Of a stretch of DNA of 64,000 nt, positions 9,521 to 58,370 are shown in pieces. The position numbers were made by a program, and so were the translations under genes. Under the pieces are notes generated by a model. The model did no database searches and had not been told where the DNA came from. It saw nothing but the letters and a program-made list of their open reading frames with translations. The DNA lies in contig MCGE01000002.1 of the NCBI GenBank assembly GCA_002105175.1, positions 2,418,001-2,482,000 on the forward strand. The letters run 5' to 3'. Source of the DNA: Absidia repens (lineage: Eukaryota; Mucoromycota; Mucoromycetes; Mucorales; Cunninghamellaceae). The first letter of the stretch is position 1; each line of letters starts with the position of its first letter.

Positions 9521-10420
9521 TTTCAAGACCCGCCCACGTGAAATATTTATTTTTTCTCTCCCGCCTATTTTTTTTTTTTTTTTCTGCTCTCTTTCTTCTT
9601 ACTTTTTTTTTATTTCATTTTTCTTCACCATTCAACATCTACAGGGTTATTTTGGACTTAGAATAGTGCCAGGACTAGTTTAGAAGGGGTTTTCGGCTCA
9701 GGGATTACAAGGGGCATGGGGAACCCTTTCATTTTGGATTCAAGATTTGGGACCACCATTAGTTGACTTTTTCAAGTCATCATTAGTTTAGTATAGTGTT
9801 AGTTTGTCAAAGTTTGTCATAGTTTGCATCTACATCTGAATAAAATATGCCTTTTTTCTTTTTTCTTTTTTTACCTGCTTCAATGAAAAATGTCCCATCA
9901 GACTTTCTCATGTAATATACAATAGATCTCTTTTTCTGCTAGTATCAAAACCGATTGATTAGTGTTGACCGCTGTTGTGTTTCAATATATATAAGAGGAC
10001 AGCATTCAGCCTTTTTCATGCGTTGTGCATAATATCAAATCTATTTTTACAATTGTCCCTTTAGATTAGTGTTGACCATCCTTCTGAACTTCTACTAATT
10101 TCCCTTAAGCTACCTCCATTGAATCTCTTCTTACAATGAACCCCATGACTGTAGATTAGTATTGACACAAATTGCTTCAATAAATTATGCCTTTTTTTTT
10201 ATTAACTATCCTCTGAGTCATTATTTTGTAAGCCGCACTTTTATTGTCGCTGTTTTGTGAGTGTCTTACTATACACCCGCTTTTAAGCTCATCAACTAGG
10301 ACTGATTCCCTCAGAGACTCAGCGATTGACAATTCTAGGTCACTGATAATATCCAGATAGACCTATTCCTACAGCATCAGTAGTGATATTAATGAACGTA
10401 GTATGTGCTGTCAGTATAAT
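9521..10420 (+). repeat. Dispersed repeat family R1, copy 1
   Basis: Long copy in + orientation. It starts with a TTTCAAGACCCGCCCACGTG head, then a T/C-rich tract, then the conserved core (about 9650-9850) including CTCAGGGATTACAA and GCATGGGGAACCCTTTC, then CTGAATAAAATATG. Further GATTAGTGTTGACC-like modules follow near 9957, 10065 and 10154, with a second CAATAAATTATG at about 10179. A distal block (TTAATGAACGTAGTATGTGC, about 10390) matches the far end of copy 2. No ORF of note. Outer limits are approximate because they come from eye alignment to the copies at 14640, 28181 and 52352. Confidence 0.8.
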
Positions 10421-10483
10421 CTCGTTATTAGTTTCATTGCGTATGGTATAATGAAAAAATAACAATAACATGAAATCCCAAAC

Positions 10484-10660
10484 TTCAGTCAATTAGGCCC
10501 CAAAGGACTGTCTATTAAAGTGTGAAATCATGGAGACGTCAATGCTCATCCGAGTATCTTTTGGCATGCACAAAGAAGTCGATCAACGAATTATTGAACA
10601 TAGCAGGTATAGCAGCTAGTCCTCCGCTAAAACGTAAAATGGCGGGGAGTCAAAGCACAT
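10484..10660 (+). repeat. Short repeat family R2, two diverged units
   Basis: A unit at 10484-10545 (GGCCCCAAAGGACTGTCTAT then GTGTGAAATCATGGAG) matches units at 57790 and 57680. A weaker second unit at about 10600-10660 has the same end pattern (CGTAAAATGGCGGGGAG), giving a period of roughly 110 bases, similar to the 57.7 kb pair. The match is by eye and the second unit is uncertain. Confidence 0.5.
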
Positions 10661-11187
10661 CATATCAAATCTCACACTTCAAGCCTGTAGATGTTTCTTA
10701 TTGGAACTGTAAGAATGTTTTTATCTTTTTTTTCGGATTGGGGCGTGCTAAGTGAAAGTGTCCTGAACCTTGCCCAATTCCACTAAATGATATAATGTCG
10801 ATCCGGTAATATAAAGTGTGTGTCTACACTGAGACCACGTTCATACTACATAGCAAAAACAGGCTCTTGGTTGATGAATTAGCCCCCAAAAAAGGACTTC
10901 GAAAAAAAAAAATTAAAAAAAGCAGGGTCAATTGAAATCAACCCGAACCTGACAACATGTCCGCTGCATTTTCAGGTACCACCCTACCCAAGCCACTTAG
11001 ATACTCCCATCAATATAAATAAAATTCAGCAAAGTTTAAAAATACGGAGGAATAGCACCAACTACACATCACAAAATCATACTCATCATACGCATCATAT
11101 TCATAGTTTTCAGTTCGACAAAATAATGATATTTTTTTTATTTCAGCTTTTGCTATCTATAAAATATGTTCCTAAACTACCGCAAAT

Positions 11188-12464
11188 CTAGTACTTCTTA
11201 CCGAAGACAGCAACTTGGAGGTAATCGTAACCACTAAAAATTGGAAAAAAAATAAATTAATATTTCCATTCAAATCGTCTGTTTTAAACCCGCTCGATTC
11301 TCTTCAATTGATTATTTACCTGAGCACACCAGCACCAGCAATGGCACGGAGAATGTTAGCACCGGCACCCTTGAACAATGACTTGGCACCTTCGTTCTTG
11401 ACGATTTCCTTGAAGGCGGCCATGGAGGAGTCGTACTTGACGGCAGCACCGGAGGTCATCATCATACGTCTACGGACGGTATCAATGGGGTAAGAGGCTA
11501 CGAGTAAAAAAAAAAAAAAAAAAAGTAAGCCACCAAGCATTCAATCCCCGATATCATTCCTCGCTTCAAACTTACCAAGACCAGCACCAGTAGTGACAGC
11601 CCAACCCAAAGCGAAGGAAGCCAAGAAGGAGTCCTTGAGGTTTTCAGGGAGGACGGGCTTGATGGAATCGTACATACCGAAGTACAAACCTATATGAGAA
11701 ATAAAAGGTGAGTACCAAAAATAAATCACGAATAAAATTCCAAATACAACTTACCGCGGTAAACAATGATACCAACACAAGAGATGTTGAAACCACGGTA
11801 AAGACCAGCAATACCATCAGAAGCCAAAGTCTTTCTGTAGACGTCGACCAAACCGTTGAATTGACGTTCACCACCAACCTTGGAGGACTTGGCGTCGTTA
11901 GCAAGACGGGTACGAGCATAATCCAAAGAGTAGACGAAGAAGAGGGAACAAGCACCAGCAGCACCACCGGAAGCCAAGTTACCAGCGAACCAAGCCCAGT
12001 AGCCATCCTTCTTCTTATCCTTGTTGAACATACGCTTGAATTGATCCTTGAAAGCAAAGTTCAAAGCTTGGGTAGGGAAGTAACGGATGACGTTAGCAGT
12101 GTTACCTCTCCACATGGAGACCAAACCTTCATCCTTGACGGTACGGTTGAAACAGTCAACGATACCCTTGTAAGGAGAGTTGAGACGACCTTGCTTGATC
12201 ATTTCATCTTGGTTTTGGACCAAAAGCTTGATACGTTCAATGGGGGCAGCAGCAGTCTTGGAGACAGCGGCGGAGACACCACCCATAAGGAAGTCCTATT
12301 TTTAAAAAAGAAGAATATCATCATCAGTTCCAAAGGTCATAGAAATCAAACGAATAATTTTTCTCGTTATCGCCCCTTTTTTTTTAACAGCATAATATAG
12401 TAATATAATAAAATAATAATATACTTACAATAGCAAACTTGTTTTGTTCAACGAAAGAAGTCAT
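11188..12464 (-). CDS. AAC: Mitochondrial ADP/ATP carrier
   Basis: Five exons on the minus strand (12429-12464, 11755-12295, 11576-11689, 11320-11497, 11188-11233) give 304 aa, the normal length. The protein exchanges matrix ATP for cytosolic ADP across the inner mitochondrial membrane. All three mitochondrial-carrier repeats are visible, with signatures [18 protein letters not shown] and [10 protein letters not shown]. The nucleotide-carrier hallmark RRRMMM is present near residue 240. The first coding exon encodes only [12 protein letters not shown]. The codons are strongly biased towards GCT/GGT/AAG/TTC-type preferred codons, as expected for a very highly expressed gene. The upstream region has a CCAAT-type motif next to a CAAGCGCTTG palindrome. 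Confidence 0.96.
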
Positions 12465-13168
12465 TTTTTATAAATGCACTGAGTGGGGTAAGAGTTAAGG
12501 AAAAAGGGAAAGAAAAAAAAAAGGAGTAAAATTGAGTCTTCCGTTACTTTATAGTACGTGAAAAATTTTTTGATTGGTCAAGCGCTTGTTTTTTTCTTCT
12601 CCAGCCAGGGGGTCTTGAAAAATTATTTGTGATTTTTCTCGTCCCCTGGTTGACGACGAGCGAGAAAAAAAAACAAAGACTTTCATAATCCGCACGCAGA
12701 TTTTGTTACATACCCAATCAATGCTATGGAGGCGTTCATGAGAAAAAAGACAGTATGGAAATCATTTCTGAAGGAAGTACTGCGAGTCGTCACTTTTGTT
12801 CTTTCTATTACAAAAGGCATTGAAAAAAAAGAATTAACAGGGACTTGGCTAATCATGATCTTCACTACGTTAAAGTCCCGCTTTGCCCTGTTGAGCTCTT
12901 AACTGGACGGCCCCTTTGGAATGAAATTCTTTTTAATATTGCTTTGTGCAAACTGCCGGATAGTCTATTAAAGAGCCAATTTCCTGTTGAGACTTCAATA
13001 TAAAAGTTGTCAATATGAATTAATTTTTTTCTATACGAATAAACTGAGCCAATTAAATCCATTGGGTTGTCGCTCAATATTAAGGAACCAAGAATTGGAA
13101 TTCAAACTGCGCCGCTTTCATTCGCACCAGCAATGATTGGATTTTTCCCTTTCTTTCTTGTACTTACA
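12465..13168. other. Divergent promoter region, carrier / ISA2
   Basis: About 700 bases between two divergent start codons. Apart from the CCAAT/palindrome site near the carrier, it is AT-rich without clear motifs. An in-frame ATG at 13067 could extend the ISA2-like protein. Confidence 0.55.
12570..12588 (-). promoter_or_regulatory. ATTGG (CCAAT) plus CAAGCGCTTG palindrome upstream of the carrier
   Basis: The + strand reads TGATTGGTCAAGCGCTTG about 110 bases before the carrier ATG. The 10-base palindrome recurs at 21358-21367 upstream of the F-BAR gene, again near an ATTGG box. Function is inferred from position only. Confidence 0.4.
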
Positions 13169-13910
13169 ATGTTTCGATCCTTATTACCAATTTCATCAAG
13201 GCTGTCTTTATCAAGGAAGCTGATCAAACCAGTATTACTACCAGCAAGGCTCAGTATATTTCCACACAATGTGCAACGACGGCAACTCTACGGGTCGCAG
13301 CCTACCAACAATTTGAACAATCAGCGTTGGAATGGGGCGACAGTCAGACAAGCTTCCAACGAGGCTGGTATCAATATTACAGATAGAGCTTTGAAGGTAA
13401 AACGAAACAAAATACAATGACTTTGTTTTGTCTTGTTTTAGGACCAAGAAATCATGAAGCTAACTTTTTATTTATATTTTTTTTGAATATATCAAATATA
13501 GCAATTAACTTACATTGCGGAACGGGACAACGATGATAAACAGCTGCTGCGTGTCACAGTGGATTCTGGAGGCTGCCATGGTTTTCAAAACAAGATGGAA
13601 CTTACTAGTACTACCGACGAAGATGATTTGTAAGTTAATCAATTTACACAGCTACACGCTTGATGAAATGACAATAACTAACCTGCCATTCTTTTCTATC
13701 CTTGTGATGATTTTTAGTGTGTTTGAAAAGGATGGCGTGCAGGTTGTCATAGATGGTATCTCCTTGCAATACCTTCGGGGCTCCAATGTTGATTTTGTTG
13801 AAGAATTAATTGGATCTACTTTCCAAGTGGTGGACAATCCCAATGCTAAACATTCGTGCGGTTGCAACATCTCTTTTGACATTGACTTGGACATGATTAC
13901 TCAAAATTAG
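13169..13910 (+). CDS. ISA2: Mitochondrial iron-sulfur cluster assembly protein, ISA2/ISCA2 type
   Basis: Exons 13169-13396, 13502-13629 and 13718-13910 give 182 aa. A-type (HesB/IscA) proteins act late in mitochondrial [4Fe-4S] cluster assembly. The three conserved cysteines are visible: Cys101 in VDSGGCHGF and Cys166/Cys168 in HSCGC near the C-terminus. Residues 1-50 are rich in Arg/Ser/Leu without acids, a presequence. The ATG at 13169 is preferred because it opens this presequence; the in-frame ATG at 13067 would add 34 residues with a hydrophobic stretch. HGF after the first Cys and the spacing to SCGC fit ISA2 rather than ISA1, a family-level inference. Confidence 0.88.
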
Positions 13911-14639
13911 AAATTGTAGTTTAGTTATATATATATATATTCCATCATTCCGCTTTATTATATACATTGTTGCTTTTTTAAAAATCTTATTTTGCTCATT
14001 TTTGCCGGACATATTGACGTCTTAGTATATTTTGCAGTTTAGTGTACTTTCATATATTTAATAAGTAAATAAACTCTCTGTCACTGCGTTGGAGCGTTGC
14101 ACAAGAGTAGGTCTACAATGTATCGTTGCTTTTTTTTTTTTTTTTTTGAAGTGTGGACTTTGGTGGGGTGGGGAATATTGGGATGGGTGACGTCTTGAAG
14201 ACCAACCGTCGTACTCAGTGTTCTGCCTCTTGGATATTTTTCAGGTATGGCAAACTACTGGGTGGTAGTGTGGAAGGGAGGGACTTGGAGTGCAGCTTTT
14301 AATGACATTAGATAACTTCTCGTTATTCTGCATCAGCAAAGCGCTTTTTGGAGCTCAACTGGCTTGAAGTTGAACTTCTTTTTATTTTATTTTATTATAC
14401 CACATGCAAGTAATAGTAAAGTCAATAAAGAGCTGGATATATACAGTATGATCAGCCAAACGAAGGTTACGTCTGTGACAAAATCTGGGTTCATTTATAT
14501 GAATGGACTGGGAATATGTCCACGAGTCATATAAGTGGCCTACAATACTCAACCAGAAGGGTGGCCCTAGGAGCCCAACGCACATGGTCATACATAAGCT
14601 AGAAAATAGTACAGAATAATCTACAGTGGCGGCTACACG

Positions 14640-15481
14640 CACAGCACAAGCTAGGTTTATTTATATGAATGGTCAAGCAGGAATTATTTTTGATAATAAA
14701 CAGTCTAACACTACCAATCAGTTTTTAGGGCATAGAGTGGAGAAATAGTCATATAAAGATTTAAAGAGGAAGTGCTTGGTAAGCACTCTCAAAAACGCCG
14801 AAATAGCGATCATTTTACTGTACTATAGGTGAAAGGACGTTTAAGTAAAACATATTTTATTAATTTATATTGACAGATATTAAAACTAAAGGAGTGGGTT
14901 TCATTGTAACAAGGGATTCAATGGAAGGACCTACTGGAGGAAGCAGGAGAAAGACTAATAAGATTTGAAGAATGGTCAGCAATAACTAAAAGGTCAATTG
15001 TAAAATGGGAGCTAATATATTGTATAGTACAACTCATGAGAAATTTTAAAGGGACGTACGTTATTGAAGCGGAAAAACAAGCAACTTTAATCAAAGTGGC
15101 GGTGGTGGTAAGAAAGGGATCTATTACACAAGACATGAGAGAAACTAATGGAACATTTTTCATTGATATAAGAAAAAAGAGACATATTTTATTCAGATGT
15201 AGATACAAGTGATTGACAAGCTAACACTATACTAAGCTTAAAGAAGGTTCCAAAAAGCCAACTAATGGTGGTTCTAATCCTGAATCCAAAATGAAAGGGT
15301 TTTCCCATGCATCTTGTAATTGCTGAGCTGAAATCCCTTCTAAACTAGACCTGACACTAATCTAAGATTGTCATAATTTCAAAAAAGTTGAATGATGAAG
15401 AAAAAAGAGAAGAAAAAGAAAGAAAAAGAGAGGCAAAAAAAAACGGGAGTAAATAAAAATTCACGTGGGCGGGATGTGAAA
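14640..15481 (-). repeat. Dispersed repeat family R1, copy 2
   Basis: Long copy in reverse orientation. The head (TTTCACATCCCGCCCACGTG on the minus strand) lies at 15481-15462 and the core near 15370-15210. A second AATAAAATATG module lies at about 14860, and the distal block (CATTCATATAAATAAACC with TTGTGCTG) at 14680-14640. The distal block is partly duplicated at 14465-14510 (CATTCATATAAATGAACC). Limits approximate. Confidence 0.78.
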
Positions 15482-16511
15482 TAATATTTTTGACTGAGTG
15501 TTGCAAATCCTCACCCCTCAGCCAAGACCGACTCAAACGTCCAAGACCTTTTTTTCTTAAAAAAATACAAAAACCAAGCACGTACAGTAATTTTGTTCCT
15601 TTTCGATCTTTACTATCGCATTACGTGGTACAAAGCTTCACTGGCAAGTAAAATAAATATCCTTTACGTTTTTCATGAGAGCGGGATATTTTAGTTCTTA
15701 TTGAACTGTATCATATACCCCACAATCTTTTCCCCGCGAAACAAGTACCATGTGGCAAATACATAAATAAAAGCACCAATATTTAGGTGCACTGAAAACC
15801 CATAAAAAACTGGATCTTCGGTACCTAGTAGTGTTTAATCCACTAAAAAAATAAACACATTGTACAAAAAATAGAGGGCATCATTCGTTTATTAATATAT
15901 AGATATTCCTAACACATAGGGACTGCAATACCACATCTTATTGAAGTGATGTTTCTAATACTACAAGAATGTACAGAGGGACTATAACTACTGTAAAACT
16001 ACTTATTAGAAGAAGCGACTCCATCAGTTGAAAGTATTTTGACACTGGCAAGAAAAAAAAGGAAGGCTCCTATAAGAAAATGTAAATCGTTAGTAAATAA
16101 ATGATTGACCAAGTATTTATCTATTACGCTTACCATTAACACATACATCAATATCTTATCGATCCCAGTTTTTATCACAATTCAGGACCACAGCAAGAGG
16201 CGGATCGAACTTTTCACTGTAATTGAAGAAAAAATAGATAGGGGGCCATGGTCATAAAGTCAGAAAAGAAAAATGCAAGAGTATACCAGCACTATTGGTA
16301 AAATAAAATTAGTTCAAATAATAGCACCATATAATCAGATCAGATACATAGCCCATCCCCATTCCTCCCCCCCCTCTTTTTTTTTTCTAAGTCAGTTTCC
16401 CCAGATGACCTCCCTGTCGCTTTTGTTGAATGATCAGTTAACAGAAATAGCATGCAAATCAGAGGATATACACATACGTATATAAGCGATCCCGTCTTCC
16501 AATCCATTTTA

Positions 16512-18147: not shown

Positions 18148-18226
18148 GATAAAGTATGTGTGCTTTTGTTTTTGTTTTGTTTTGATTTAAAAACAACAGA
18201 TAGAAACAAATTCCCCTATTTTATAT

Positions 18227-18259: not shown

Positions 18260-19554
18260 GGTCTGGGAAAAGTTAGCCCAAAAGGGGAGGGCGTGGGATC
18301 ATTGTGCCTAACTAAGTAAGATCAGTTGATTTTGAACACGTTTTAGTTCACTTGTTTGATTCCATTGGATGATGAGAAATTCCCCTCGTAACTTCTGACT
18401 AAAAATACCTCAGTCCGCTTGGAGGCGGTTTGTGATTAATGAATGAAAAATAGCATTAATCCAGCAAAGCGGCCGTTCTTTAGTCTATTTTTTATTCACA
18501 TTTTACCCCCCTCATGCTGTTTAACATTGTTATCATTTTCCCTATCATGTCATGCATTATATGTATGATATATGTACCATATTGCATTAGCTACAAATAT
18601 CACCTTCCATGACACAGAATGATAAAACAGGAGGAAAATGAGAGGTATGATTCCGCGGAACTTGACCATTAGTCAAGACTGGATATTTTTGGAGCGAGTT
18701 CTCGGGGGTTTAATCATTGTTTACCCACACTTACTTTTTTTGTGCGCGGTGAATTATTTTTATTCTTCTATCTCGAAAGATTCAGGAACACTGAAGGGAA
18801 ACCATACCGCGGACTTTTCTTCTTTATTTGCTTTATTTATCACTGCAGTGTGATAAGTGATAACAATCAAATGTTAACTGGGGAGTTAGATACGAGAGCA
18901 ATCATTATCACTATTAACTATCATATCTTTTTCCAAATTCTGTGTCCTAGTTTTTTATTATTATTGTACTCATTACTGTAAGTAGCAACTCCCTTGTGAC
19001 GAAGTTTGGGCAAAGAAATACTTCGTGAATAATATTACCTGATCACACCCGTTCACAGCGGAGTTTATTCCGTTGTTTATTTTGTCGAAATGCCTTCAAC
19101 TTCAAATTCTATCAATATGTTTCCTGAATTATTGTACTGTACTGCACTTTTGTCTATCGGCTTTCTCTGAAAATTTCCGAAAATTTATCTTTCAAGGCAT
19201 AATCAACTATTTAGTACAGTATAGGAATATCACTGTAGTACAGTGTAGTATAGTTTATTATTGATCATCACTGTCTATTATATACAAGGTTTGTATTTTA
19301 TCCCATTCCACACCCCTTTGCTTCATTGCTGCTTATTATAACATTTTCGCCTGTCTCATCCCAAACACCATCATCCCACCCCTCTGTCTCAACTACCATC
19401 CTTAATTATATATGATAAATAAATAAAAACTTCTATCTCAAAGTGAAGACGTGAAATACGCAGAATACGGCGTTCAGTGCTAGTCGATAGTATAAATATG
19501 CAATTTGAATCTATTTAATTATAAAGTAGGGATCTGGGGCGCAAGATAGATTGA

Positions 19555-20016
19555 GTCACTCTTAAAAAATAAAAGACATATTTTATTGAAGCATAAAAAG
19601 CAAACATAAACTGGGACAATCAACACTAATCTAAAGAGACGCGGGAACGAATGTAAAATAGATCTACTGTAGGAGGCAAACTAAACATATGGGAGAGAGA
19701 GAGACTAAGGGTAGAAAACAGATATGGTGTATTAAATTTATATATAGGTATACACCATTGGCAACTGATACTAAACTAAGCTAATGAAGATTTCATAAAG
19801 CCCAATCAATGATGGTTTTCAATCTTGAATCCAAAATGAAAGGGTTACCCCATGCATGTTGTAATCCCTGAGCTAAAAACCTTTCTAAACTAGTCCTGAC
19901 ACTATCCTAAGTTTAATATAGGTCCATAGAAGTTGAATGATGAAGAAAAAAAGGAAGGGAAAATAGAAAAGAAGAAAAAGTGAACAATAAAATAAATTAC
20001 GAGGGCGGGATTTGAA
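19555..20016 (-). repeat. Dispersed repeat family R1, copy 3 (shorter)
   Basis: Reverse orientation. The head TTTCAAATCCCGCCCTCGTA (minus strand) has lost the CACGTG. The core is intact (GCATGGGGTAACCCTTTC), and a GATTAGTGTTGA module with CAATAAAATATGTC lies only ~200 bases beyond the core, so the spacing is compressed relative to copies 1, 4 and 5. Distal block not seen. Confidence 0.78.
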
Positions 20017-21357
20017 ATCTACTGACTAGGTCCTGTCTATCGCAAGCTTGCCAACTTTTCCTGACTTGAGTTCTTTCTTTGCTCCACGGACCCAGCATCC
20101 ATTCCTCCTACCTTTGCATCTCTCATTTTATTTCTTTTTCGATCCCTATCGATAACTCCTGTGAAATATTATCAGTTTTTCACTACCGCCCTCCTTTCAG
20201 CCTGACATGTTCACTGGAAGTTTACCTTTGATCTGGAATTTTTCTTCGCTTCTGACATTCAACAACGTACCTATTCCCACCTCTCCCCCTCTTTCATCAA
20301 CGATTTAGATAGACTTCCTGTAGCCCATATTTTTGCTTTACCTCTAGTTTAGACAAAGTCTTTTCTATAGCTACCTATTTTTATTTTCTATATCTATGCA
20401 CTGATAAAATAAAAGTTTGGAGCTCTGACTTTCCTACAAAGAGAAAAAAACATTATTCAATGTCTTTACTTTTGCTTGCATAAGAGCCAATGGTTGGGAT
20501 GTAGAAGACGTAGTTCTGACTCTGATAAGCTAACGATTGAAATCGGCTATAGATGCCCTTAAATCTCTGGTGAAAAACGGCTTACTCACAAGGAACGTCA
20601 ACTAACAAGATGATGCTGGTCATTCAGGAGTTCACCATCCAATCCTGGTTCACAAAGAAAAAGAAGAGCTTCTATCATTGGAAATTCTTGTGTTCTATGG
20701 AGACAGGTTATGAAGAATAGCATATGACACGATAAATAAACCCATTCACTTTTTTTTTTTGAATATATAGTATACTTGAAGTTTAGTATCTCAAGTAACT
20801 GGTAGCAAAATCCCATACTCAGTTGTACAAATCGGATATATCGTTCAAATACCGGAAGCTGGAGTCTCATGTATCGCCAGCTTGCTTTTGATGCAGTACC
20901 TGCCCCTTTTCATTGTCTCTTACAAATCAGATCTTTGGCCTAGCTCCCCCACCAGCAACCTACAGTCTTATCAGAATTAGATGCTGCATTATTTGAAAAC
21001 CATTGCCGTCGATGTCGCGCATTTTGAGTATATTTTGCATCATAAAATGCTCATCCCCACTACCATCGCTTTTTCAAAGGTCGACATGTAATTTTGGAAA
21101 GACTATATCCGCCCACAATGGAAATTCTGTTTAGCATATCATACTATAGTATAGTTGACTTGATTTGACCCTTTCAAAAAACTTTCTTTATTTTTTTTTT
21201 TTTATCCTTACTGTATTTTATATTGTCTTTATATTGCGTTGGATATTAGAATACCCAAAATCAAAATGGTGACAGGTTGATCGAAAAAATCCCGAAATCT
21301 GTTTTTTCAGGTACAACACCGATTTCAAAAGTGTGCGATCCAAATGGGATTAGGGGC

Positions 21358-27689: not shown

Positions 27690-27790
27690 AAAATATATTT
27701 TATTCAGACGTATGATAATTAAACTACCCTGGTCTAAAGATAATACTATAACACATATTCAAGTGTGAGGCAACTAAGCGTAATGAGTGT
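27690..27790 (-). repeat. Degenerate R1 fragment (copy 7)
   Basis: The minus strand reads GTTATAGTATTATCTTTAG, then a run ending CTGAATAAAATATAT, matching the end of the R1 core (AGTGTTAGTTTGTC through CTGAATAAAATATG). Only this part is recognisable. Confidence 0.4.
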
Positions 27791-28180
27791 GGAATGTATG
27801 GTGGGGTGGTGTATCTTGTTGTAAAATAAACGTAACAGAAGCGAAGCTAGTCCAATCAAAGAGGCGGATGGAAAACGCAAACTATTCTACTATTCTACAG
27901 CAAAGGTGTAAACCAGGTCAAATTCTCCAATATGAACACCAAAGTCATAATTAGAAAAGAATCGCCATATTACATGACAGAACCACAATGCTGCCAACGT
28001 TGACTAATGTGAAAGGATAAGGAAACCACCATACCACAGTTATAGAATGATGGCAATTTCTGTTGGCATAAGAGAAGTACCATGTTGATGATGTTGCATG
28101 ATATTAATTTTGACATGACAAAAAAAAAGGGTGAGCGTTCCTTTTTTGTATCTGCAAGATAATGGTTGACGATATATCTA

Positions 28181-29075
28181 TTTCAAATCCCGTCCACGTG
28201 AAATTTTATTCACTCCGGCACCCGACCTCTCTATCTCTCTCTTTCTTTCTCCTTCATTTTCATTTTTTTTTCTTCATCATTGTAACTTCTTTGAGGTTAT
28301 GATGGACTTAGATTAGTGTCAGGATTAGTTTAGAAGGGGTTTCAGCTCAGGGATTACAACATGCATGGGGAAACCCTTTCATTTTGGTTTCAGGATTTCG
28401 GATCACCATCAGTTGGCTTTTTGTAGCCTTCATTAGCTTAGTTTATTGTTAGCTTGTCCATAATTTGTATCTATATCTAAATAAAATAGGTCTTTTTTTG
28501 CCTGTTTCAATGAAATATGTCTCATTAGTGTCTCTTATATTTAAACAATAGATTCCTATTCGTTTCCCTTTCTTTTTTTTTGTTTGTTTTTACAACAATC
28601 TATCCCGTTTGATCGGTTGTTGTGTTTCATAAAAAGACAACCTTGCGCAATATTCAAGATTCCAATTTACGCCCGTTCCTTGACGTTCCCTTAGAATAGT
28701 ATTAACCTTTATTCAAACCTCTGAATAGTCTCCCTCATAGTACCTCCGATAGAACTTTTCCGGTTAAATTCCTTGTTGGAATGAACCCTTCCTTTTGGAA
28801 TGGACCCATTTCTTAGTTTCAGTATCTACCAATTATATTCCAATAAGATATATTCTTTTTATTATCCATCCTCTGACCTATAGTATAGTGATAAAAGTCG
28901 CCGTTGTAAGCTGTTTTGCACGCGGCCTATCAAAGACCTGCTTTCTAACCCCCCCCCCATTATGACTATTTTCCCTTTATTCGTTGGCAGTCTGAGACCA
29001 CTTAGTGTCGGATGGCCATATTCATACTCAACCAATTACATAAATGAACCTAGATCATAGTATTAGCATTTTATA
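28181..29075 (+). repeat. Dispersed repeat family R1, copy 4
   Basis: Long + copy. The head TTTCAAATCCCGTCCACGTG begins at 28181. The core near 28295-28490 has GCATGGGGAAACCCTTTC, and TAAATAAAATAGGTC follows. A second module at 28690-28860 has TTAGAATAGTATTAACC and a CCAATAAGATATATTC variant. The distal block (AAATGAACCTAGATCATAG) lies near 29045. Best copy for recognising the family, together with copy 5. Confidence 0.82.
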
Positions 29076-46148: not shown

Positions 46149-46652
46149 ACCAAAGGTTTATATTTTTTTATATTATGATTATCTCTCCATTTAGTATATA
46201 CCCCTTCCCTCTTTCTCCCCATCTCTTTTTACCTTTATTGTTATTATTCCCTTTTTTATACTTTTGTTTTCATCCTCTCCTCTGTTCCTCATTTTCTTAA
46301 TATCATATTTACTGTGTATATCTTACTCTTTATATATATATATATATATATTATCCATCCTGATTACCGGAAATAATAAAAACGACCTTCCTTTTTTAAT
46401 TCTATCGTTCTATTGGCTTGTTCATGTTATAGCGGGCGGGATTGCAAATTTTGGGATGTGTGATGGGGTCGAGACAAATTTGTGCCAAAATAGGAACGAC
46501 TACCGTCAGTTTAAAAATAAATTTCTTGGTCAATTAGAGCTCTTTTTTTATCAGCCTCTTTTTTTTCCCCTTTCCTTTTCTCTTTGTTTTTTCTTCCTTC
46601 GTCTCTCTTCTTTTTTCCACTCCATTCTTGTTTTTACTTCTACCTATTTAAT
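46149..46652. other. Spacer before the syntaxin gene
   Basis: AT-rich with a TA repeat (46331-46352), a GC-richer patch (GCGGGCGGGATTGC, ~46432) and a strongly pyrimidine-rich leader. Likely the syntaxin promoter; no gene. Confidence 0.55.
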
Positions 46653-47603
46653 ATGAATGTGGATAGACTCAATGATCTTCGAACCCAAGGAGGACCTGAT
46701 ACGAACAACAACAACAACAATGGCGGACGATATGAAATGCGACCATTATTAGCAGCCCCTTCAGACCCAACATCCATGGATGGCTTTCTGAACAACATCT
46801 CACAACTCCAAGAAGTAATCCGGTCCATTAATGACAATGTACAACGGGTACAGACCCACCAGGCAGCGATGCTCCAGACGGCAGATACAGAAGAAATGGC
46901 ACGCCATCGGTCACAGGTGGAGTCACTGACGGAGGAAACACAGACATTGATGGGACGGGTGAAAAAACAGCTCAAGGACATTGAACCCACCTCACGGCAT
47001 TCTGATCTGGCGGTTCGCAAAAATCAATTTGCAGCGGTGACCAAGCAATTCATGGACTGTATCGAACGACATCGCACGACGGCGTTGGACTTTCAGCGAG
47101 ACGAAGGCAAGCAAATGGAACGACAGATTCGGATAGCCAACCCCAACGCGACGGCGCACGAAATTGAGCAGGCGATTGCACAGGCGGAGGAAGGTCGACC
47201 AGCGGTATTTGCCCAACAACTCCTCCAGAGCGTCAGCCAGGACCAACGACGTTACGATGCCCAAACCACCTTGGATGCTGTTCAGGAACGCCACAATGAT
47301 ATTCGCCGTCTCGCTCAAAGTGTCCAGGAACTCTCGGATCTGTTTCAGGAAATGCAGTTCTTGCTGGAAAATCAGGCCAAGGTCCTCGGTGAAATCGAAG
47401 TCAACTCGTATGATGTCGTCGACAACCTCGAACAAGGCGAAAAACATGTCTCCAATGCCATCTCGTCCGCCAAGGCGACCCGCCGCAAGAAATGGATTTG
47501 CTTTGGGATCTTCCTCACCATCATCATCATCATTGTTATCATCTTGGCGGTTAAATTCGCCCCCAAAGGTGGCAACGAACAAGGCGGCCAACAACCACAA
47601 TAA
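46653..47603 (+). CDS. SSO1: Plasma-membrane syntaxin (Qa-SNARE, Sso1/2-like)
   Basis: Intronless, 316 aa. Syntaxins of this type sit in the plasma membrane and fuse secretory vesicles with Sec9 and Snc partners. Residues ~40-170 look like the Habc three-helix domain (MDGFLNNISQLQEVIRSI). The SNARE motif (~210-275) includes ERHNDIRRLAQSVQELSDLF, with the zero-layer Gln in LFQEMQFLL, ending EQGEKHVSNAISSAKATRRKK. A C-terminal anchor is WICFGIFLTIIIIIVIILAVKF, followed by a short hydrophilic tail of 13 residues. A poly-N stretch lies near the N-terminus. The ATG at 46653 follows a pyrimidine leader. Unlike most neighbours it has no intron, and the coding sequence is noticeably richer in G and C. 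Confidence 0.92.
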   Translation: MNVDRLNDLRTQGGPDTNNNNNNGGRYEMRPLLAAPSDPTSMDGFLNNISQLQEVIRSINDNVQRVQTHQAAMLQTADTEEMARHRSQVESLTEETQTLMGRVKKQLKDIEPTSRHSDLAVRKNQFAAVTKQFMDCIERHRTTALDFQRDEGKQMERQIRIANPNATAHEIEQAIAQAEEGRPAVFAQQLLQSVSQDQRRYDAQTTLDAVQERHNDIRRLAQSVQELSDLFQEMQFLLENQAKVLGEIEVNSYDVVDNLEQGEKHVSNAISSAKATRRKKWICFGIFLTIIIIIVIILAVKFAPKGGNEQGGQQPQ

Positions 47604-51546: not shown

Positions 51547-52083
51547 ATGCCGTCGGTTTTTACACTGGACAAAACCTTGGACGATATTTGTACCGAGTAT
51601 GATTATGGTATTGTCTCTGGCTCAGTCACTGTCTTCATCAGAGACAGTGTTGAAAACTATGGCCGCTTTGAACTTACTATATTAGAAGGCATTCTTCTCA
51701 TTATTGATGCCTTTGAAGATGGGTTTATGGTATGTGGACGTTTACTCTCACGGTCATACTTGCGTATTAAATTATCATATTATATATTCTAGATTACCCA
51801 ATGTACACCCCTCTTCGATACGCCTACCATCAGTGACTCATTAAAATTAGTACAAGATCAACTGGAAAAGAAATATGATACCTTGAATAAATTGTTGTTG
51901 ACAATATCCCCACACTTTAGTCAACGCTATTGGGATAAGATTCAAACAATAACTCCGACGTTGACGGATTTGTATGACTCTACCATGCCGGCCATGGGCT
52001 CTCCGTCATTACAACTACAACAACAGTCGACATCATCATCAACAGAAAACACAGAAAATGACATTTTTGAATGGTTAAATTGA
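51547..52083 (+). CDS. Hypothetical protein with possible GSKIP-like domain
   Basis: Exons 51547-51729 and 51793-52083 give 157 aa starting MPSVFTLDKTLDDI. A beta-rich N-terminal part (SVTVFIRDSVENYGRFELTI then EGILLIIDAF) leads to DTLNKLLLTISPHFSQRYWDKI. The pattern LLxxISPxFxxxFxxKL resembles the end of the GSKIP/DUF727 domain (GSK3-interacting protein; also at the N-terminus of CLU). The tail is Gln/Ser-rich and ends NDIFEWLN, an acidic-aromatic peptide. No signal or membrane segment. The domain call comes from pattern memory and would need a profile search; the gene model itself is sound. Confidence 0.7.
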
Positions 52084-52351
52084 TTCAATAGACTCCTCTC
52101 TGTAGCCTTTGGTCATGTATTTTTATATAACTAACATGTGCATAGCTCTGTGATTATCAACTTTGTGAACATAATAAAAAAATGCGGTGGTATAGATCTA
52201 ATAGTAATTTGTTAATATAACTTTTTCCTTAATGATTTATGATAATGTCAATAGCGATGGACAAAGATTCTGCTGAATCTTCTCACAATTTGTATATTCC
52301 GTGCTTTTCGTTTTGTAACCAACGAAAACCACCGGACTGCCGAGAAAAAAA

Positions 52352-53345
52352 TTAAATTAAATTCCGACCACGTGAAATATTCATTTTCTTGCTCCCGCCT
52401 TTTTATTTATTCGGCTGTCTTCCTTTTCATTTCTTTTTTTTTCCTTCATTTTTTTTTTTTTTTTTTTTTTTTTTACCAATCAACTTTTATGGGGTTATTT
52501 TGGGCTTAGAATAGTATCAGGACTAGTTTAGAACGGTTTCCAGCTCAGGGATTACAAGATGCATGGGGAGACCCTTTCATTTTGGATCCAGGATTCAGAC
52601 CCACCATTGGTTAGCTTATTGGTCCTTCCATTAGCTTAGTTTATTGTTAGTTTGTCCATAGATTGTGTCTACATATGAATAAAATATGTCTTTTTTCTTA
52701 CATACGTCAATGAAACTGTCTCATTAATTCTTCTCTCATGTTTTGTACAAGAGATCCCTTTTCACCTTTCCAGCTTCAGATTCGTATCGCCATTGATATG
52801 TTTCAGTAACAGATATTTTTTTAACCTTCATGTCTTGCACAATGCAATATATTAGATCCTGTTTAGCATTATTCCCTTTATATTAATATTGAACATTCTT
52901 TATTCTTATGTTGGTCTCCCTCATCCTACCTCTTATAGATCCTATGTCACATGAACCCCTCACCTTTAGTTTTAGTATCTACCTAGGATACTTCAATAAA
53001 ATATATACCCGTTTTCTTCGTATCCTCTAACCCATTATACAATGCGCGAAACTGTTATTATAACGATTGTGTAAATGCTCTATCAAACACCTACTTTCTA
53101 TCTCACCCGCTGTTACTACTTTTAACTTAGTGCTAGTAATCGATTGTAAGATTTAGCTCAAGCCATAAGGCGTAGTCGCCACTAAAAGAAATTTGTCCCT
53201 CCATTCTGATTTATTCACTATGACACTCTTTTAGGGCTACAGCAGCTACTTTTGCGGTTTTAGGTAGCTTGATATAAAATGCGACGCCTTCCCTGAACTA
53301 CCATTCATATTAATCGACCTGGTAGTATACCGCTAGCACAGCCTC
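52352..53345 (+). repeat. Dispersed repeat family R1, copy 5
   Basis: Long + copy starting about 270 bases after the GSKIP-like stop. The head contains CCACGTGAAATATTCATTTT, followed by a T run (52450-52474). The core (52490-52690) has GCATGGGGAGACCCTTTC and ATGAATAAAATATGTC. Later modules include CTTCAATAAAATATATACCC near 52993 and a distal CATTCATATTAATCGACC block near 53304. No ORF. Confidence 0.82.
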
Positions 53346-54249
53346 CACTAGATATGACAAACTGTATATATGTAGTTTATTATCTTGATTGCGAATAGTA
53401 TAATACCCCCCCACGCATATACGCATACACCTAGTTTCTTTATATTCAGATATGTATCAGAGTATGTAATATCATTAACTAGTTTAGTTTCATTGTCATC
53501 ATTCATATTTACACCTCAATTAAATGTTTTTTTTCTTGTTGCTTTTGCATCAGCTTTCTATATGCTTAGTTTGCATTGTCGAATGGATATTGTGTGTTTA
53601 GAAAAAAGTCAAGTAGATAGAGGTACATATGAGTTCCAAAAAAAAAAGAGGACTGTGTGTGAGGCAGCATCGATCAACCGTTGTGCTCAGTTCTTAAAAA
53701 ATGGGCATGGCGGACGCATGATAAAAAGATAGTAAATAATGCATAAAAAAAATAGCTTATAATGATTTAAAGCGCACAGGAAGATATGTACGCCAGTCGG
53801 TTGAAGTCGCTTATTATCTCAATTTTTTTTTTTTTTTATTTTTTTATGTATGCACACTCACGCACACACCAATATTAACCGCCACCCCTCACTTCTCCGG
53901 GTAACTAATACGTTGATGATATTACATAGTGTCAATGTTATAGCAAAGAAGAGAAGTCCAAAAAAGGGAGGGGGAAGAGGATTTCCTTTTCTGCGTCGAC
54001 TTTGGTTGATGGACGAGAAAAACACTGGCCAGCAACTGAATTCTTTTTTGGGGGAATTTAAATCGCCGCTCTGGAGTTTTTGAGAAAAAAGGGATTTTTT
54101 TGCTCGAGAAGATTTGCTCTTTCTCTTTTGCATTACGTCCTTTTTTCAACGTAAGACTGACAAAAAAAAAGCATACATATTTAAGAGACAGAGTCATGAA
54201 GGATGTTGAAGTGATCAGTGTAGGAATGTATGGATGAATGGGGTAGTTC

Positions 54250-54282
54250 GATGGATGGATGGATGGATGGATGGATGGATGG
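54250..54282. repeat. (GGAT)n tetranucleotide repeat
   Basis: About eight GGAT units, ~110 bases before the uL6 start codon. Confidence 0.92.
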
Positions 54283-54391
54283 AAAGGTGCACAAAGTGAA
54301 TTACTATTTTTGACACAATGAAATGGGCTAGAATACTGATTCGATTTTTGTTTTATTTACAAATAGGGATTTTTAGCTCCATTTATCAACT

Positions 54392-55071
54392 ATGAAGGTA
54401 TGTATACTTAGTAATCAAACTCTATAGGAATGTTTGCACCCTGTTTGACAAAAACAGAAAAAGAACTCTATTGAAAACTGACGATTTTCTATTTCAATTG
54501 AAAATAGGATATCTACCAAGACGACGAACTCATCATCCCCCAAGGTGTCAAGGTCTCCATCAAGGCCCGTGATGTCACCGTTACTGGTCCCCGTGGTACT
54601 TTGAACAAGAACCTCCGTCACTTGAACATTGAAATCAAGTTTGTGGGTAAGGACAAGCTCAAGTTTGTTGTCTACCACGGTGGTCGCAAGCACATTGCCT
54701 GTATCCGTACCGTCCGCTCTCTCGTCAACAACATGATCACTGGTGTCACCAAGGGTTTCCAATACAAGATGCGTTACGTCTATGCGCATTTCCCCATCAA
54801 CTGTATCATCAACAACGACGGTAAGGATGTGGAAATCCGTAACTTCTTGGGTCAAAAGGTTGTCTTCCGTGTCCAAATGCGTGAAGGTGTCACTGTTGCT
54901 GCCTCTACCAACCAAAAGGATGAATTGACTTTGACTGGTAACGATTTGGAAGCTGTCTCTCAATGTGCCGCTGATATCCAACAATCCTGCTTGGTCAAGA
55001 ACAAGGATATCCGTAAATTCTTGGATGGTATCTACGTTTCTGAACGCAATGTCATCGAAACTGATGCTTAA
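54392..55071 (+). CDS. RPL9: 60S ribosomal protein uL6 (L9)
   Basis: Exons 54392-54397 (ATGAAG) and 54508-55071 give 189 aa, the usual size (human RPL9 192 aa). uL6 is a core large-subunit protein near the GTPase-associated centre. The protein reads [20 protein letters not shown], then two L6 domains with [12 protein letters not shown] and ending [13 protein letters not shown]. The six-base coding exon before a 110-base intron is typical of ribosomal protein genes with an intron next to the start. Strong preferred-codon use throughout. A poly(A)-type signal AAATAAAA lies near 55196. Confidence 0.96.
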
Positions 55072-55856
55072 AAAAATTCTCCCTTGTCCCCCCTTCCAAC
55101 TTATTTTTTTATCATCATCATCAACATCAACCATTATTATTAGTTAGAAAATGGAATTCTATTGTAGTAATTTAGGATTAGTCTTTAGATATTCAAATAA
55201 AAAATCATTTTCTTTCGAATCATTCTTCCTTTTTTTTTGGTCTATTTTTTTTATTGTTTGTTGTTTTATTACTTTGAACGGGATCAAACTGGTAATGGTT
55301 TATGTGATGGACAATCTACAGTTTATTAGCTTTGGATTGAGAGACAAATAAAATAACTTGAAATATAAAACATTTACTTCGTCTCAATTTTCAGTTTCTT
55401 CGGTCCAAAAAGATAATGCTATTGTGGATCCGATCAAATATAAAATAGTTGTATAGATTTGAAGTCAATGTGCAAAGTACTGGCATCATATTATTTGAAA
55501 TCAAATGTGTAGAGTCATACAAAGTAATTGATATTTAAATAAATAGGCTTTTTTTTATTGATGAAATATAAAGATGTTATTATATGGGGATACATGTGTA
55601 AAGCGCTATAAAAGAATAATAATCGCTTTGGGGTTGAAGACTAAATATGTAATAAACGATGATACAAGCTGCTAACGTTTTTTTTTTGTTTTATTATTAT
55701 TATTGACAAAATGTAATCGATAAAGCAGGGCTAAAAAATGAGATAGTGAATATAAATAAACTAAGGGGATATAATAAGAGTTCCGTGGTAAAGACAGTGA
55801 ATGATAGAGAGACCATATAGTCCAGCCATAAACATACAAATATATAAATACACATC
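55072..55856. other. Convergent 3' region, uL6 / VPS26
   Basis: AT-rich 3' UTRs and spacer. No gene or RNA recognised. Confidence 0.6.
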
Positions 55857-56335
55857 CTATTCTTCGTCTGGAGGATACCCATCATCAACTATATGGAAAG
55901 AAAGTTGATCAGTCTTCAGTATGACCATATATGTATATAATATTGGACTTACTTTTCCGTCTGAACATAGTAATTTCTTGCTGCTTGAAGTAACGGCGGT
56001 TTTCTTCATCAATCAGGACAAGATTCAAATAGTACCTAGTCGAGTATTTCTTGTTCACATCTAAAAAAAGAGGGTTTTTAAGTAGCCATATACCATGATC
56101 ATCATCTATTTACCTCTAAATGTAGGAGCCAATTCAAATCCACCCAAAAATAATCGAATAGGAATAGTTTCGCCTTCAAGTATTTGTATATATATATATA
56201 TATATATATAAATTAGGAGAAGATGTCAATATTATTCAATTTGTCTGTGTTAATTATATTACCTTTGACGGGAGCACCATCCATGATTTCAAATCTTGTT
56301 ACCGTTTCACTTTCATTATATACATTGGGCACTAG

Positions 56336-56379
<44 letters not shown>

Positions 56380-57559
56380 AGGATGGTCGGTTCCCAGTGT
56401 GCCTAACTATATTGCTGTCTACCCTTCTTCTCAAAGCCTTACTAGCACCAGTAGTTTCTCTACGGATAATGGATAGCTCCATGGTCTTGATCTTGATACG
56501 AACCAGCAAAAAGTAGATTTTTCCTACAATGACATCCTTCAAGTAGTATCTAAAAGTATGCATATATTAGTGTTCAACGTATGTCTTTTTCAAGAATTCA
56601 TCACCAGCTTTACTTACTTCGATTTGTTGTATTCAAATTCAATATGCAGACAGTCTTCAATTCCCACTTCCATTTTGATCGAGTTGCTGACTTCGGTAGG
56701 CATGCGATAAGAGTAAACCCACATATCTTTTTCACGAATCAAGTCGGCCATACGTCTAGCCACTGTCACCCGAATATAATATCTACGTATACGAATATAT
56801 GAAAAGAGAGAAGGACAACAGATTAAATACATATCATCTGAAACCGCTTGGAAGACTATACTTTTAGATGAGGACGTACCTTAGCTTGGCGTTAATTCCA
56901 TTGTAGCATTCATATTGCTTTTCGACATTTTTGAATTCAAAATCAAAGGAGGCACTTTGACGCAAGTCACCAGGGGCAGCCAGCTCTTGAGAGAGGGTAA
57001 GGAATTCGTGCGATTTTCCTCGGTCATAAAACAATTCTATCATGGGAAAAAAAGCATCGAGTCAGTTCTTCCAGTCACCTTTATATAGGGTATATCTATA
57101 CTGTATTTCCTCTTACCTATGCTGCCGACAAATTCAACTTTAATACCATTATGCTCAAAACGCTTTCCATCCTTCAACCTAACAGTTGCCTAGAGAGTGG
57201 ACAAATGTATAAAGAGTGGGTTTCATTTTTCCAACTTTTTGTGGAGGATGAGGGGGAGGGGTGTTATTACCGTGCCACTAACTGTTTCGCCATCCAAGTA
57301 CACAGGTAAACTTTCACGTTGGTCCTTGTCGATTTTCACATCCACATGTTTTCGTTCATTCTCGCCTTTAAAGTTCACCTGAATATCCACAGGTGTGGAA
57401 AGGCCAAAAAGACTCTGCTCATCAATTAAGTGAATAAAGAAAGAAAGAAAAAGGTCAGTAAGCCATTGTCACAAAACTATTATCCCTGTACTTCGCATAT
57501 ATTATAAGTTCATAAATTCTTTTGTAATACGTCGCTCTATCACTTACTGCCATAGACAT
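55857..57559 (-). CDS. VPS26: Retromer subunit VPS26
   Basis: Ten exons: 57548-57559, 57271-57414, 57117-57189, 56880-57036, 56618-56782, 56443-56549, 56263-56331, 56114-56173, 55953-56060, 55857-55888; 308 aa. VPS26 is the arrestin-fold subunit of retromer, which returns receptors from endosomes to the Golgi. Highly conserved parts: GIKVEFVGSIELFYDRG, SSIKMEVG-like NSIKMEVGIEDCLHIEFEYN, LKDVIVGKIYFLLVRIKIK, ETIPIRLFLGGFELAPT and RYYLNLVLIDEENRRYFKQQ. The first exon encodes only MSMA. The second exon's acceptor is ambiguous (GAG or CAG, three bases apart), adding or omitting one Gln. The C-terminal tail after FRR is short (KIDDGYPPDEE). Confidence 0.95.
56338..56377. repeat. 40-base homopolymer (A on +) in a VPS26 intron
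   Basis: On the coding strand it is a T run that ends only six bases before the ATCTAG acceptor, so it serves as an extreme polypyrimidine tract. Confidence 0.95.
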
Positions 57560-57678
57560 GATGTGCTGAGAATCGTAAAAACGGGAAGAGTAAAGGGAAA
57601 AAAAAAATCGTGGCATCAGAGCCAAGAAAGCCAAATGGGAATTCAATCCCCGCTCCAAAACTCAAAACTGTATTGCGG

Positions 57679-57860
57679 ACCGCTGAGCATGACGATTAGG
57701 TTCCAAGGAATGCCTAACAAAATGTGAAATGATGGAGGCCCTTAACCCCCCCCCCCCTTCCACGCCCATAAAAATACCTAATTAGGCAGAGAGCTGAGCA
57801 TGACTATTGAGCCCCAAGGGGCAGTCTACCACAGTGCGAAATAGCGGAGGCAAACCCTGG
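57679..57860 (+). repeat. Short repeat family R2, tandem-like pair
   Basis: Two units about 110 bases apart, both containing GCTGAGCATGAC followed by a TTCC/CCCC-AAGG segment and then GTG(C/T)GAAAT with GGAGGC. The second unit matches 10484. A poly-C run (57749-57759) lies between the units. Confidence 0.6.
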
Positions 57861-57883
57861 TAGTTTCTTTTTTTCCGCACATA

Positions 57884-58000
57884 CACACACACGCACATGG
57901 AAACACACATACACACACGCACATGGAAACACACATACACACACACACATACATACATACATACATACATACACACGCATATACACATACACATTCATGC
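57884..58000. repeat. CA/CATA simple-sequence block
   Basis: ACACACGCACATGGAAACAC repeated twice, then CA runs and CATA units (57949-57972). Overlapping short ORFs here are simple-repeat artefacts. Confidence 0.9.
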
Positions 58001-58154
58001 CTGTTTCCTCATACACAGCTACACAGTTTATATTCTTTGAAACAGAACACTGAGCAGTCACCCAGTATTCAACCCCCCCTCCCATACCTGAATTTTTTGT
58101 ATACACACCTTACATACCCATTCAACAAGATAAATAATTTCATGTAAGAGACTA

Positions 58155-58370
58155 TGGTATTGTAAAAAACAATAATGTTTTATTCAGATATATACAACAA
58201 TGCCAACTAACAATAATCTACTCTAATGACATTATCAAAGTGGTCGCAAACCCTGCATGCAAAATAAAAGGGTTCCTCCATGATGTTTGTTTTACATTTT
58301 TTAAAATGCCCCTAATCCAAGTTCTAACAGTAATCCAAGATGTCCATTACTTCTATCAGGTTACCATTTA
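58155..58370 (-). repeat. Degenerate R1 copy 6
   Basis: The minus strand carries the R1 core in order: GGATTACTGTTAGAACTTGG, later GAGGAACCCTTTTATTTTGC, GACCACTTTG, TTATTGTTAGTTGGC and CTGAATAAAACATTATTG. Diverged, with head and far end missing. Confidence 0.6.

What the first reader, a model, noticed from the sequence alone, without database searches (positions are those of the whole stretch)
9521..58370. A dispersed non-coding repeat family (R1): five long copies and two remnants in one window
Seen: similar sequence at 9521-10420 (+), 14640-15481 (-), 19555-20016 (-), 28181-29075 (+), 52352-53345 (+), and decayed remnants at 58155-58370 (-) and 27690-27790 (-). Shared order in the long copies: head with CCCGCCCACGTG, T/C tract, a well-kept ~200-base core, AATAAAATATG, further AATAAA modules, and in four copies a distal block CATTCATATAAATGAACC-like. 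All lie between genes. There is no ORF, no obvious terminal inverted repeat and no reverse transcriptase. The core is better kept than the flanks, which suggests either recent spread or constraint. Candidates: solo LTRs, a non-autonomous element, or a family of non-coding RNA genes.
Basis: seen in the sequence. Interest (0 to 1): 0.78.

Follow-up and report, generated by a model that had tools for sequence, protein, structure and literature searches.

The report
Dispersed repeat as retrotransposon landing pad
A non-coding repeat scattered in thousands of places between the genes of a fungus contains one exact spot at which a family of jumping genes inserts itself, a precision that is unusual for jumping genes of this type.

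Summary
The repeat is real and far more abundant than reported. Five long copies and the 58155-58370 remnant are confirmed; 27690-27790 is not. The genome, a Mucorales fungus near Halteromyces/Absidia, holds 3,015 R1 head sites (up to 3 mismatches) against 0 for the reversed control; 19 of 20 heads checked carry the core. R1 looks like a non-coding Pol II-type unit: CCCGCCCACGTG head, T/C tract, core of about 215 bp, AATAAA. No shared ORF, conserved fold or Rfam match was found.

Unexpected: one LTR-retrotransposon family is inserted at a single position in the R1 core in 10 of 11 copies with both LTRs, in both orientations (4 and 6). Two loci read on both sides show the two R1 halves and a 5-bp duplication (GAGAC; GTTTC). 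Three apparently solo LTRs lie at the same site; a fourth could not be judged. A second family sits 18 and 22 bp upstream of the R1 head in 2 of 4 copies. R1 is thus a landing pad. How R1 itself arose, mobile element or RNA genes, is unresolved.

The parts
9520..10380 (+). R1 copy 1 (head 9522-9540, core 9623-9849, tail with AATAAA modules)
   Evidence: profile hit E 4e-190; core 8.8% from consensus
14666..15483 (-). R1 copy 2 (core 15183-15400)
   Evidence: profile hit E 3e-179; core 12.9% from consensus
19490..20019 (-). R1 copy 3, short tail (core 19730-19945)
   Evidence: profile hit E 5e-89; core 16.7% from consensus
28180..29038 (+). R1 copy 4 (core 28272-28489)
   Evidence: profile hit E 2e-188; core 8.8% from consensus
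52356..53307 (+). R1 copy 5 (core 52473-52688; 53199-53307 is a weak tail piece)
   Evidence: profile hit E 2e-171, tail piece E 0.14; core 12.0% from consensus
58170..58420 (-). R1 remnant
   Evidence: profile hit E 9e-15
28370..28374 (+). empty integration site in copy 4 (GAAAC), the position at which family B LTR retrotransposons insert in other R1 copies
   Evidence: position; insertions at this site elsewhere:
52568..52572 (+). empty integration site in copy 5 (GAGAC)
9721..9725 (+). equivalent of the integration site in copy 1 (one base shorter: GAACC)
15299..15303 (-). equivalent of the integration site in copy 2 (AAAAC)
19844..19848 (-). equivalent of the integration site in copy 3 (GTAAC)

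Best explanation
R1 is a family of about 3,000 or more dispersed, non-coding, promoter-bearing units that serves as the landing pad of LTR retrotransposons. SHOWN: one LTR family (family B: LTR about 283 bp with TG...CA ends, element about 5.4 kb) is inserted in either orientation at one position in the most conserved part of the core (GCATGGG/GAAAC/CCTTTC), with those 5 bp duplicated where both sides were read. SUGGESTED by few copies: a second family (A) inserts about 20 bp upstream of the R1 head. INFERRED: the head (E-box, TATA-like stretch, T/C tract, CATTCAAC start) is a working Pol II promoter, the RNA ends at AATAAA, and the conserved core block is bound by a host protein or read directly by the family B integrase, which is why insertion is exact. 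Insertion into a non-coding multicopy unit between genes would cost the host little. R1 itself probably spread as an old mobile or duplicating unit whose copies exchanged short patches; by what mechanism is not settled.
For: Family B: in 10 of 11 copies the 3' LTR ends in R1 at profile position 199 (R1 forward, 4 copies) or 203 (R1 reverse, 6 copies; 201 in L085, which lacks a base): L075, L083-L086, L088-L092. All 11 have a second LTR about 5 kb upstream. The left side was read at three places: C1 5' flank ...GCATGGGGAGAC|TGATGTG with 3' ...CTATATCA|GAGACCCTTTC; C3 5' ...AAAGGGTTTC|TGATGTG with 3' CTATATCA|GTTTCCCC; apparently solo LTR on C56 ...GCATGGGGAAAC|TGATGTG. Two more apparently solo LTRs (C12, C22) show the site on the 3' side. 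Independent insertions: both orientations, and R1 flanks only 67-69% alike on average, 78% at most. A rough binomial chance figure is 5e-38 (assumes 3,500 copies, 2 bp each). Family A: L078 and L082 lie 18 and 22 bp before the head (counted). Anatomy in 77 copies: AATAAA at the core end in 74, tail AATAAA 187 against 19.7 in shuffles, T/C tract 89% pyrimidine. Constraint: 53 of 218 core sites with at most 2 changes in 75 copies against 3.6 expected if uniform.
Against: One of 11 family B copies (L087, flank GGGACCCCTTGG) shows no R1 within the 390 bp fetched. Two of 4 family A copies (L076, L081) are not at a head; L076 only has an R1 piece 142 bp further on. Five other integrase loci (L073, L074, L077, L079, L080) show no clear R1 in the 3.3-3.4 kb read, though the element end was not located in three of them. 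Only 20 of 117 integrase hits were looked at, on the 3' side. The antisense AATAAA motif is also enriched in the tail (85). No RNA or chromatin data exist here, so promoter activity is untested. In the five R1 pairs with the closest tails, core and tail are equally diverged, so selection on individual copies is not proved. No conserved RNA fold was found.
Confidence: 0.62

Rival explanations
1. R1 is itself a dead non-autonomous mobile element with no host role. Family B's integrase simply has a strict DNA sequence preference that this abundant repeat happens to meet; no promoter activity or bound host factor is needed.
For: About 3,000 or more copies; the five pairs with closest tails diverge equally in core and tail (means 0.91 and 0.93); a pair about 13 kb apart is 93% alike from the head to +858, with the differences bunched after about +700 by eye; the duplicated site is tightly defined.
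Against: Family A lies just upstream of the head in 2 of 4 copies, as promoter-seeking elements do; site-by-site constraint in the core is strong; no clear ends or target duplications of R1 and no protein partner among the three families searched (Helitron, integrase, tyrosine recombinase).
Confidence: 0.3
2. R1 copies are solo LTRs (or LTRs of TRIM/LARD-like elements): head = U3, core = R, tail = U5, with an internal segment between two R1 copies as the full element.
For: A repeated non-coding internal segment (62 matched pieces, 40 of 52 candidates scored) is flanked by R1 on both sides in 9 of 9 loci read, in direct order in 8 of 9, heads 2.7-3.1 kb apart; promoter and poly(A) layout as in an LTR; in L065/L066 the shared segment starts sharply at AAATGGCAATTG about 9 bp before the head, which would allow a TG start; bases before the head are purine-rich.
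Against: No target duplication above control (k=5: 0.717 own, 0.717 other copies; k=6: 0.378, 0.353; k=7: 0.172, 0.132; 59 copies); R1 pairs within a locus are 71-86% alike in the core, like random pairs, although the internal segments are about 92% alike; no primer-binding site seen by eye; weak similarity continues upstream of the head in many copies.
Confidence: 0.15
3. R1 is a SINE or other Pol III unit.
For: Short, non-coding, thousands of copies, conserved 5' part; a TRGYNNARNNG-like stretch (TAGTTTAGAAG; box consensus recalled) is in the core.
Against: TTTT runs inside the core in 76 of 77 copies would be expected to stop Pol III; AATAAA at the core end; no Rfam match.
Confidence: 0.03

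Closest known systems
Ty3 of Saccharomyces cerevisiae (0-20 bp upstream of tRNA genes, through TFIIIB; PMC7175516, passages read)
   Same: LTR element with position-exact integration at a multicopy non-coding unit.
   Different: Family B goes into the body of a unit without tRNA features, at the same 5 bp and in both orientations.
Tf1 of Schizosaccharomyces pombe (Pol II promoters, Sap1; PMC7175516, passages read; Hickey et al. 2015 'Single-nucleotide-specific targeting' seen only as a reference title)
   Same: Family A lies just upstream of a promoter-like head in 2 of 4 copies, and its integrase tail has a weak match to the Tf2-1 SH3 model (E 6e-4, 20.4 bits against a cut-off of 30). The Hickey title shows that single-nucleotide precision relative to a host factor is known for Tf1.
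   Different: Family B lies inside the unit at a fixed sequence. [quoted passage not shown]
R1/R2 non-LTR retrotransposons and Dada DNA transposons (strict sites inside multicopy rRNA, snRNA or tRNA genes; PMC3706591, abstract and passages read)
   Same: Exact site inside a multicopy conserved unit.
   Different: Family B is an LTR element with integrase, TG...CA ends and a 5-bp duplication. That 2013 paper says such strict specificity had been seen only among non-LTR retrotransposons before Dada. The target here is an unnamed dispersed repeat, not a known RNA gene.
TRIM/LARD non-autonomous LTR elements (recalled)
   Same: Direct R1 copies around a non-coding internal segment in some loci.
   Different: LTR-defining features tested and not met.

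Membership tests
Solo LTR / LTR retrotransposon (for R1) | TG...CA ends | tested here: inconclusive
   In 60 copies the left edge is A-rich sequence then TTCAAATCCC, no TG consensus; one recent pair (L065/L066) starts at AAATGGCAATTG; right edge not definable
Solo LTR / LTR retrotransposon (for R1) | 4-6 bp target-site duplication | tested here: not met
   Own vs other-copy k-mer sharing 0.717/0.717 (k=5), 0.378/0.353 (k=6), 0.172/0.132 (k=7) in 59 copies; power is limited because the right end is not sharp
Solo LTR / LTR retrotransposon (for R1) | The two terminal repeats of one element are the most alike | tested here: not met
   8 loci with R1 on both sides in direct order
Solo LTR / LTR retrotransposon (for R1) | gag-pol partner with R1 as its LTR | tested here: not met
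   Families A and B have other LTRs; 20 of 117 integrase hits were looked at, 3' side only
Ty3/Gypsy-type LTR retrotransposon (for family B) | LTR pair with TG...CA and 5-bp duplication | tested here: met
   LTR pair in 11 of 11; ends and duplication read on both sides at 2 loci
Ty3/Gypsy-type LTR retrotransposon (for family B) | Integrase domain as the last pol domain | tested here: met
   rve ends about 560 bp before the 3' LTR; the domain-order argument is recalled
Ty3/Gypsy-type LTR retrotransposon (for family B) | Reverse transcriptase related to Ty3/Gypsy | not tested
   the pol body was not fetched
Site-specific transposable element (for family B) | Independent insertions at one nucleotide position | tested here: met
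   10 of 11 copies, both orientations, diverged flanks
Structured non-coding RNA (for R1 core) | Conserved base pairing or an Rfam match | tested here: not met
   0 predicted pairs in 76 sequences; no Rfam hit at threshold in the window, only chance-level hits at relaxed threshold
Pol II non-coding RNA gene family (for R1) | Bounded transcript from the head to the AATAAA | not testable with these tools
   no RNA data held
SINE (for R1) | Pol III transcription without an internal terminator | tested here: not met
   TTTT in the core of 76 of 77 copies
Helitron / tyrosine-recombinase element (for R1) | Association with encoded proteins | tested here: inconclusive
   19 Helitron N-domain pieces and 2 recombinase hits in the genome; exact R1 heads on C1 are not near the C1 Helitron hits, compared by eye

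The most novel reading that the evidence does not exclude
R1 is an unrecognised class of thousands of host non-coding Pol II genes, and family B is an LTR retrotransposon with truly sequence-specific integration into them: one 5-bp site inside the core, used in both orientations, the LTR counterpart of R2 in rDNA.
Probability: 0.3. Interest if true: 0.88.

Novelty: new variant of a known kind. Interest (0 to 1): 0.72.

Why it matters
Strict target sites are known for non-LTR elements such as R2 and for Dada DNA transposons (PMC3706591). An LTR element that hits one nucleotide position in an abundant, dispersed, non-coding repeat would be a natural integrase with built-in safe-harbour targeting. 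It makes a concrete question testable: does the integrase read the R1 sequence itself or a protein bound to it? It also gives a handle on what R1 is, since two LTR families appear to treat different parts of it as a landmark.

Tried and rejected
Structured RNA: RNAalifold on 76 cores gave no pair; an AAGGGTTTC/GAAACCCTT hairpin that I saw by eye is not kept across the alignment by eye and was not counted separately. Coding core: frames from the shared ATG have no common length. Rfam: only chance-level hits (none). Internal segment as a gene: no 3-base periodicity, only weak recurring hexamer signals on its minus strand; it stays unidentified. R1 in other collections: 0 exact hits to core patterns in viral contigs and genome contigs, collections that are not of fungi. 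Circular-permutation reading of L066/L072: the shared segment may be ordinary R1 tail, so I dropped it; a 6-bp AATAAA on both sides of L066, seen by eye, is too A-rich to count. Gene context: in 40 loci (35 chosen by R1 similarity, 5 of the window) the nearest upstream CDS call is on the R1 strand in 16 of 18 and the nearest downstream one is opposite in 18 of 23 (22 and 17 loci had no call), but in 114 kb of contiguous sequence the counts are 8:3 upstream and 6:5 downstream of 11, so only a tendency is claimed; CDS calls come from a home-made hexamer score. Linkage decay in the core suggests patchwise exchange but could partly reflect alignment or multi-base changes. An early comparison by eye of exact R1 heads with integrase hits on C1 suggested no association; it misses R1 copies broken or mutated at the head and was superseded.
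Full report
What was checked. The finding claims a dispersed non-coding repeat, R1. blastn of the seven intervals against the window and a profile search confirm five long copies and the remnant at 58155-58370. The interval 27690-27790 matches 22 profile positions at E 0.57 and is not supported. The window lies in a 47.37-Mb assembly of 79 contigs. The t-SNARE encoded at 46650-47600 is 91% identical to Halteromyces radiatus and 88% to Absidia cylindrospora, so the host is a Mucorales fungus of the Absidia group.

Copy number. DNA searches with two R1 copies gave about 3,500 first-look candidates each (only the best 40 are scored). The exact 12-mer CCCGCCCACGTG occurs 1,077 times against 1 for the reversed control. 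The 19-mer head with up to three mismatches occurs 3,015 times against 0. Of the first 20 exact 12-mer sites along contig C1, 19 are followed by the core; L053 is the exception, with only a weak core on the other strand. Profile hits give five full copies and a remnant in the 64-kb window, and five full copies plus two partial hits in C1:1-50000.

Anatomy. Forty copies align into a head (TTCAAATCCCGCCCACGTGAA.TATTTATTT), a T/C tract, CTTCACCATTCAACTT, a core of about 215 bp, CTGAATAAAATATG and a diverged tail. In 77 copies the tract is 89% pyrimidine with variable length, AATAAA stands at the core end in 74, and the tail has 187 AATAAA against 19.7 in shuffles (the antisense motif is also enriched, 85). 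Copies average 12% from the core consensus. A weakly shared block lies upstream; the 31 best hits of its profile, some of them the same place held in two loci, all lie 66-140 bp before an R1 core, though the profile was built from such places. There is no shared ORF, no consensus fold and no Rfam family at threshold.

How copies evolve. Over all pairs of 77 copies the mean identity is 0.80 in the core and 0.62 in the tail. In the five pairs with the closest tails, core and tail are about equal, 0.91 and 0.93. That speaks against strong selection on individual copies. Against this, 53 of 218 core sites have at most two changes in 75 copies where 3.6 are expected, and gaps are about eight times rarer in the central block, so the core has been constrained along its lineages. 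Linkage between shared variants falls to or near background within about 15-60 bp, which suggests patchwise exchange between copies. A pair about 13 kb apart (L057/L058) is 93% alike starting at the head.

Is R1 an LTR? Nine loci carrying a repeated non-coding internal segment have R1 on both sides, eight of nine in direct order. Seven of the nine were chosen by internal match; the pattern was first seen in the other two, L064 and L065. R1 pairs within a locus are 71-86% alike in the core, like random pairs, while the internal segments are about 92% alike between loci. No target duplication rises clearly above control. In favour of an LTR, one recent pair starts sharply about 9 bp before the head at AAATGGCAATTG. 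On balance R1 is not filed as an LTR.

R1 as a target. To test whether the genome's LTR elements carry R1 as LTR, I fetched stretches downstream of the integrase domain for 8 of the 117 integrase hits. Three of the 8 contained a clear R1, and there R1 lay next to or was cut by the element rather than being its LTR. I then fetched the 3' junctions of the other 10 members of family B and the other two of family A. In family B, 10 of 11 copies end at the same R1 position: LTR ...CTATATCA, then GAAACCC or GAGACCC (R1 forward, 4 copies) or GTTTCCCC / GTTCCCC (R1 reverse, 6 copies). L087 does not. A search with the 3' end found a second LTR about 5 kb upstream for all 11, and four near-complete LTRs without a partner in the list. 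The other side was then read at C1, C3 and the partnerless LTR on C56: the matching half of R1 precedes TGATGTG. At C1 the 5-mer GAGAC, a variant of the consensus GAAAC, stands on both sides; at C3 it is GTTTC on both sides. The partnerless LTRs on C12 and C22 show the same junction on their 3' side (matches with 2 mismatches; the reversed pattern gave 8 matches against 29 at up to 3 mismatches); C29 could not be judged. R1 flanks of the ten copies are only 67-69% alike on average, so these are separate insertions, not duplicates. Family A lies 18 and 22 bp before the R1 head in L078 and L082 (counted). L081 shows no R1, and L076 only an R1 piece 142 bp beyond the LTR.

Mechanism. Shown: an exact integration site in the R1 core, with 5-bp duplication, used in both orientations. 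Inferred: the conserved block is either read directly by the integrase or bound by a host protein that recruits it, and the head is a promoter, as its make-up and the two family A insertions suggest. What R1 does for the host, and how it spread, remain open.

Against the literature. [quoted passage not shown] PMC7175516 (passages read) describes Ty3 at 0-20 bp from tRNA genes through TFIIIB, and Tf1 with Sap1; its reference list names a 2015 paper on single-nucleotide-specific targeting of Tf1 by Sap1, which is not held. PMC7928374 (passages read) reports Tc1/Mariner, Ty3/Gypsy, LINE, DIRS and Helitron elements in Mucoromycotina, and nothing like R1 in the passages seen. Searches returned no paper. 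Those (12 of 22 listed) listed none whose title or abstract start describes such a repeat or such an LTR element; one search lists PMC2104539 (listing only), which mentions WEIRD, a highly expressed non-coding RNA of Magnaporthe, not compared here. The library is open-access only, so this is not proof of novelty.

Noticed in passing
window 57672-57881; also near 10480-10560 by eye; L065:9072-9642: A second short repeat (GAGCATGACTATTGAGCCCCAAGGGGCAGTCTACCACAGTGCGAAATAGCGGAGG-like) lies at 57.7 kb, apparently twice, and as a tandem array in L065.
   Followed up: partly
L065:2700-4500: A non-coding segment of about 1.5-1.8 kb, up to 90% alike between copies (62 matched pieces, 40 of 52 candidates scored), sits between two R1 copies in 9 of 9 loci read. 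It has no coding periodicity, and its shared variants lose linkage over a few hundred bases.
   Followed up: partly
L078, L082: A second LTR family (A) lies 18 and 22 bp upstream of the R1 head in 2 of 4 copies; the integrase tail in L078 has a weak match to the Tf2-1 SH3 domain.
   Followed up: partly
L075, just before its 3' LTR: The element's own sequence before the 3' LTR reads GGGGAGAC, like the R1 target GGGGAAAC before the 5' LTR.
   Followed up: no
L053: An exact R1 head without the core behind it; a run of TTTCAGAGA-like repeats follows, with a weak R1 core on the other strand further on.
   Followed up: no
L013: Two R1 copies in direct tandem about 1.4 kb apart, each with an upstream-block hit.
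   Followed up: partly
C1:406330-420510 (L057, L058): Two R1 copies in opposite orientation about 13 kb apart are 93% alike from the head to +858, mostly before about +700 by eye: possible recent conversion or copying.
   Followed up: partly
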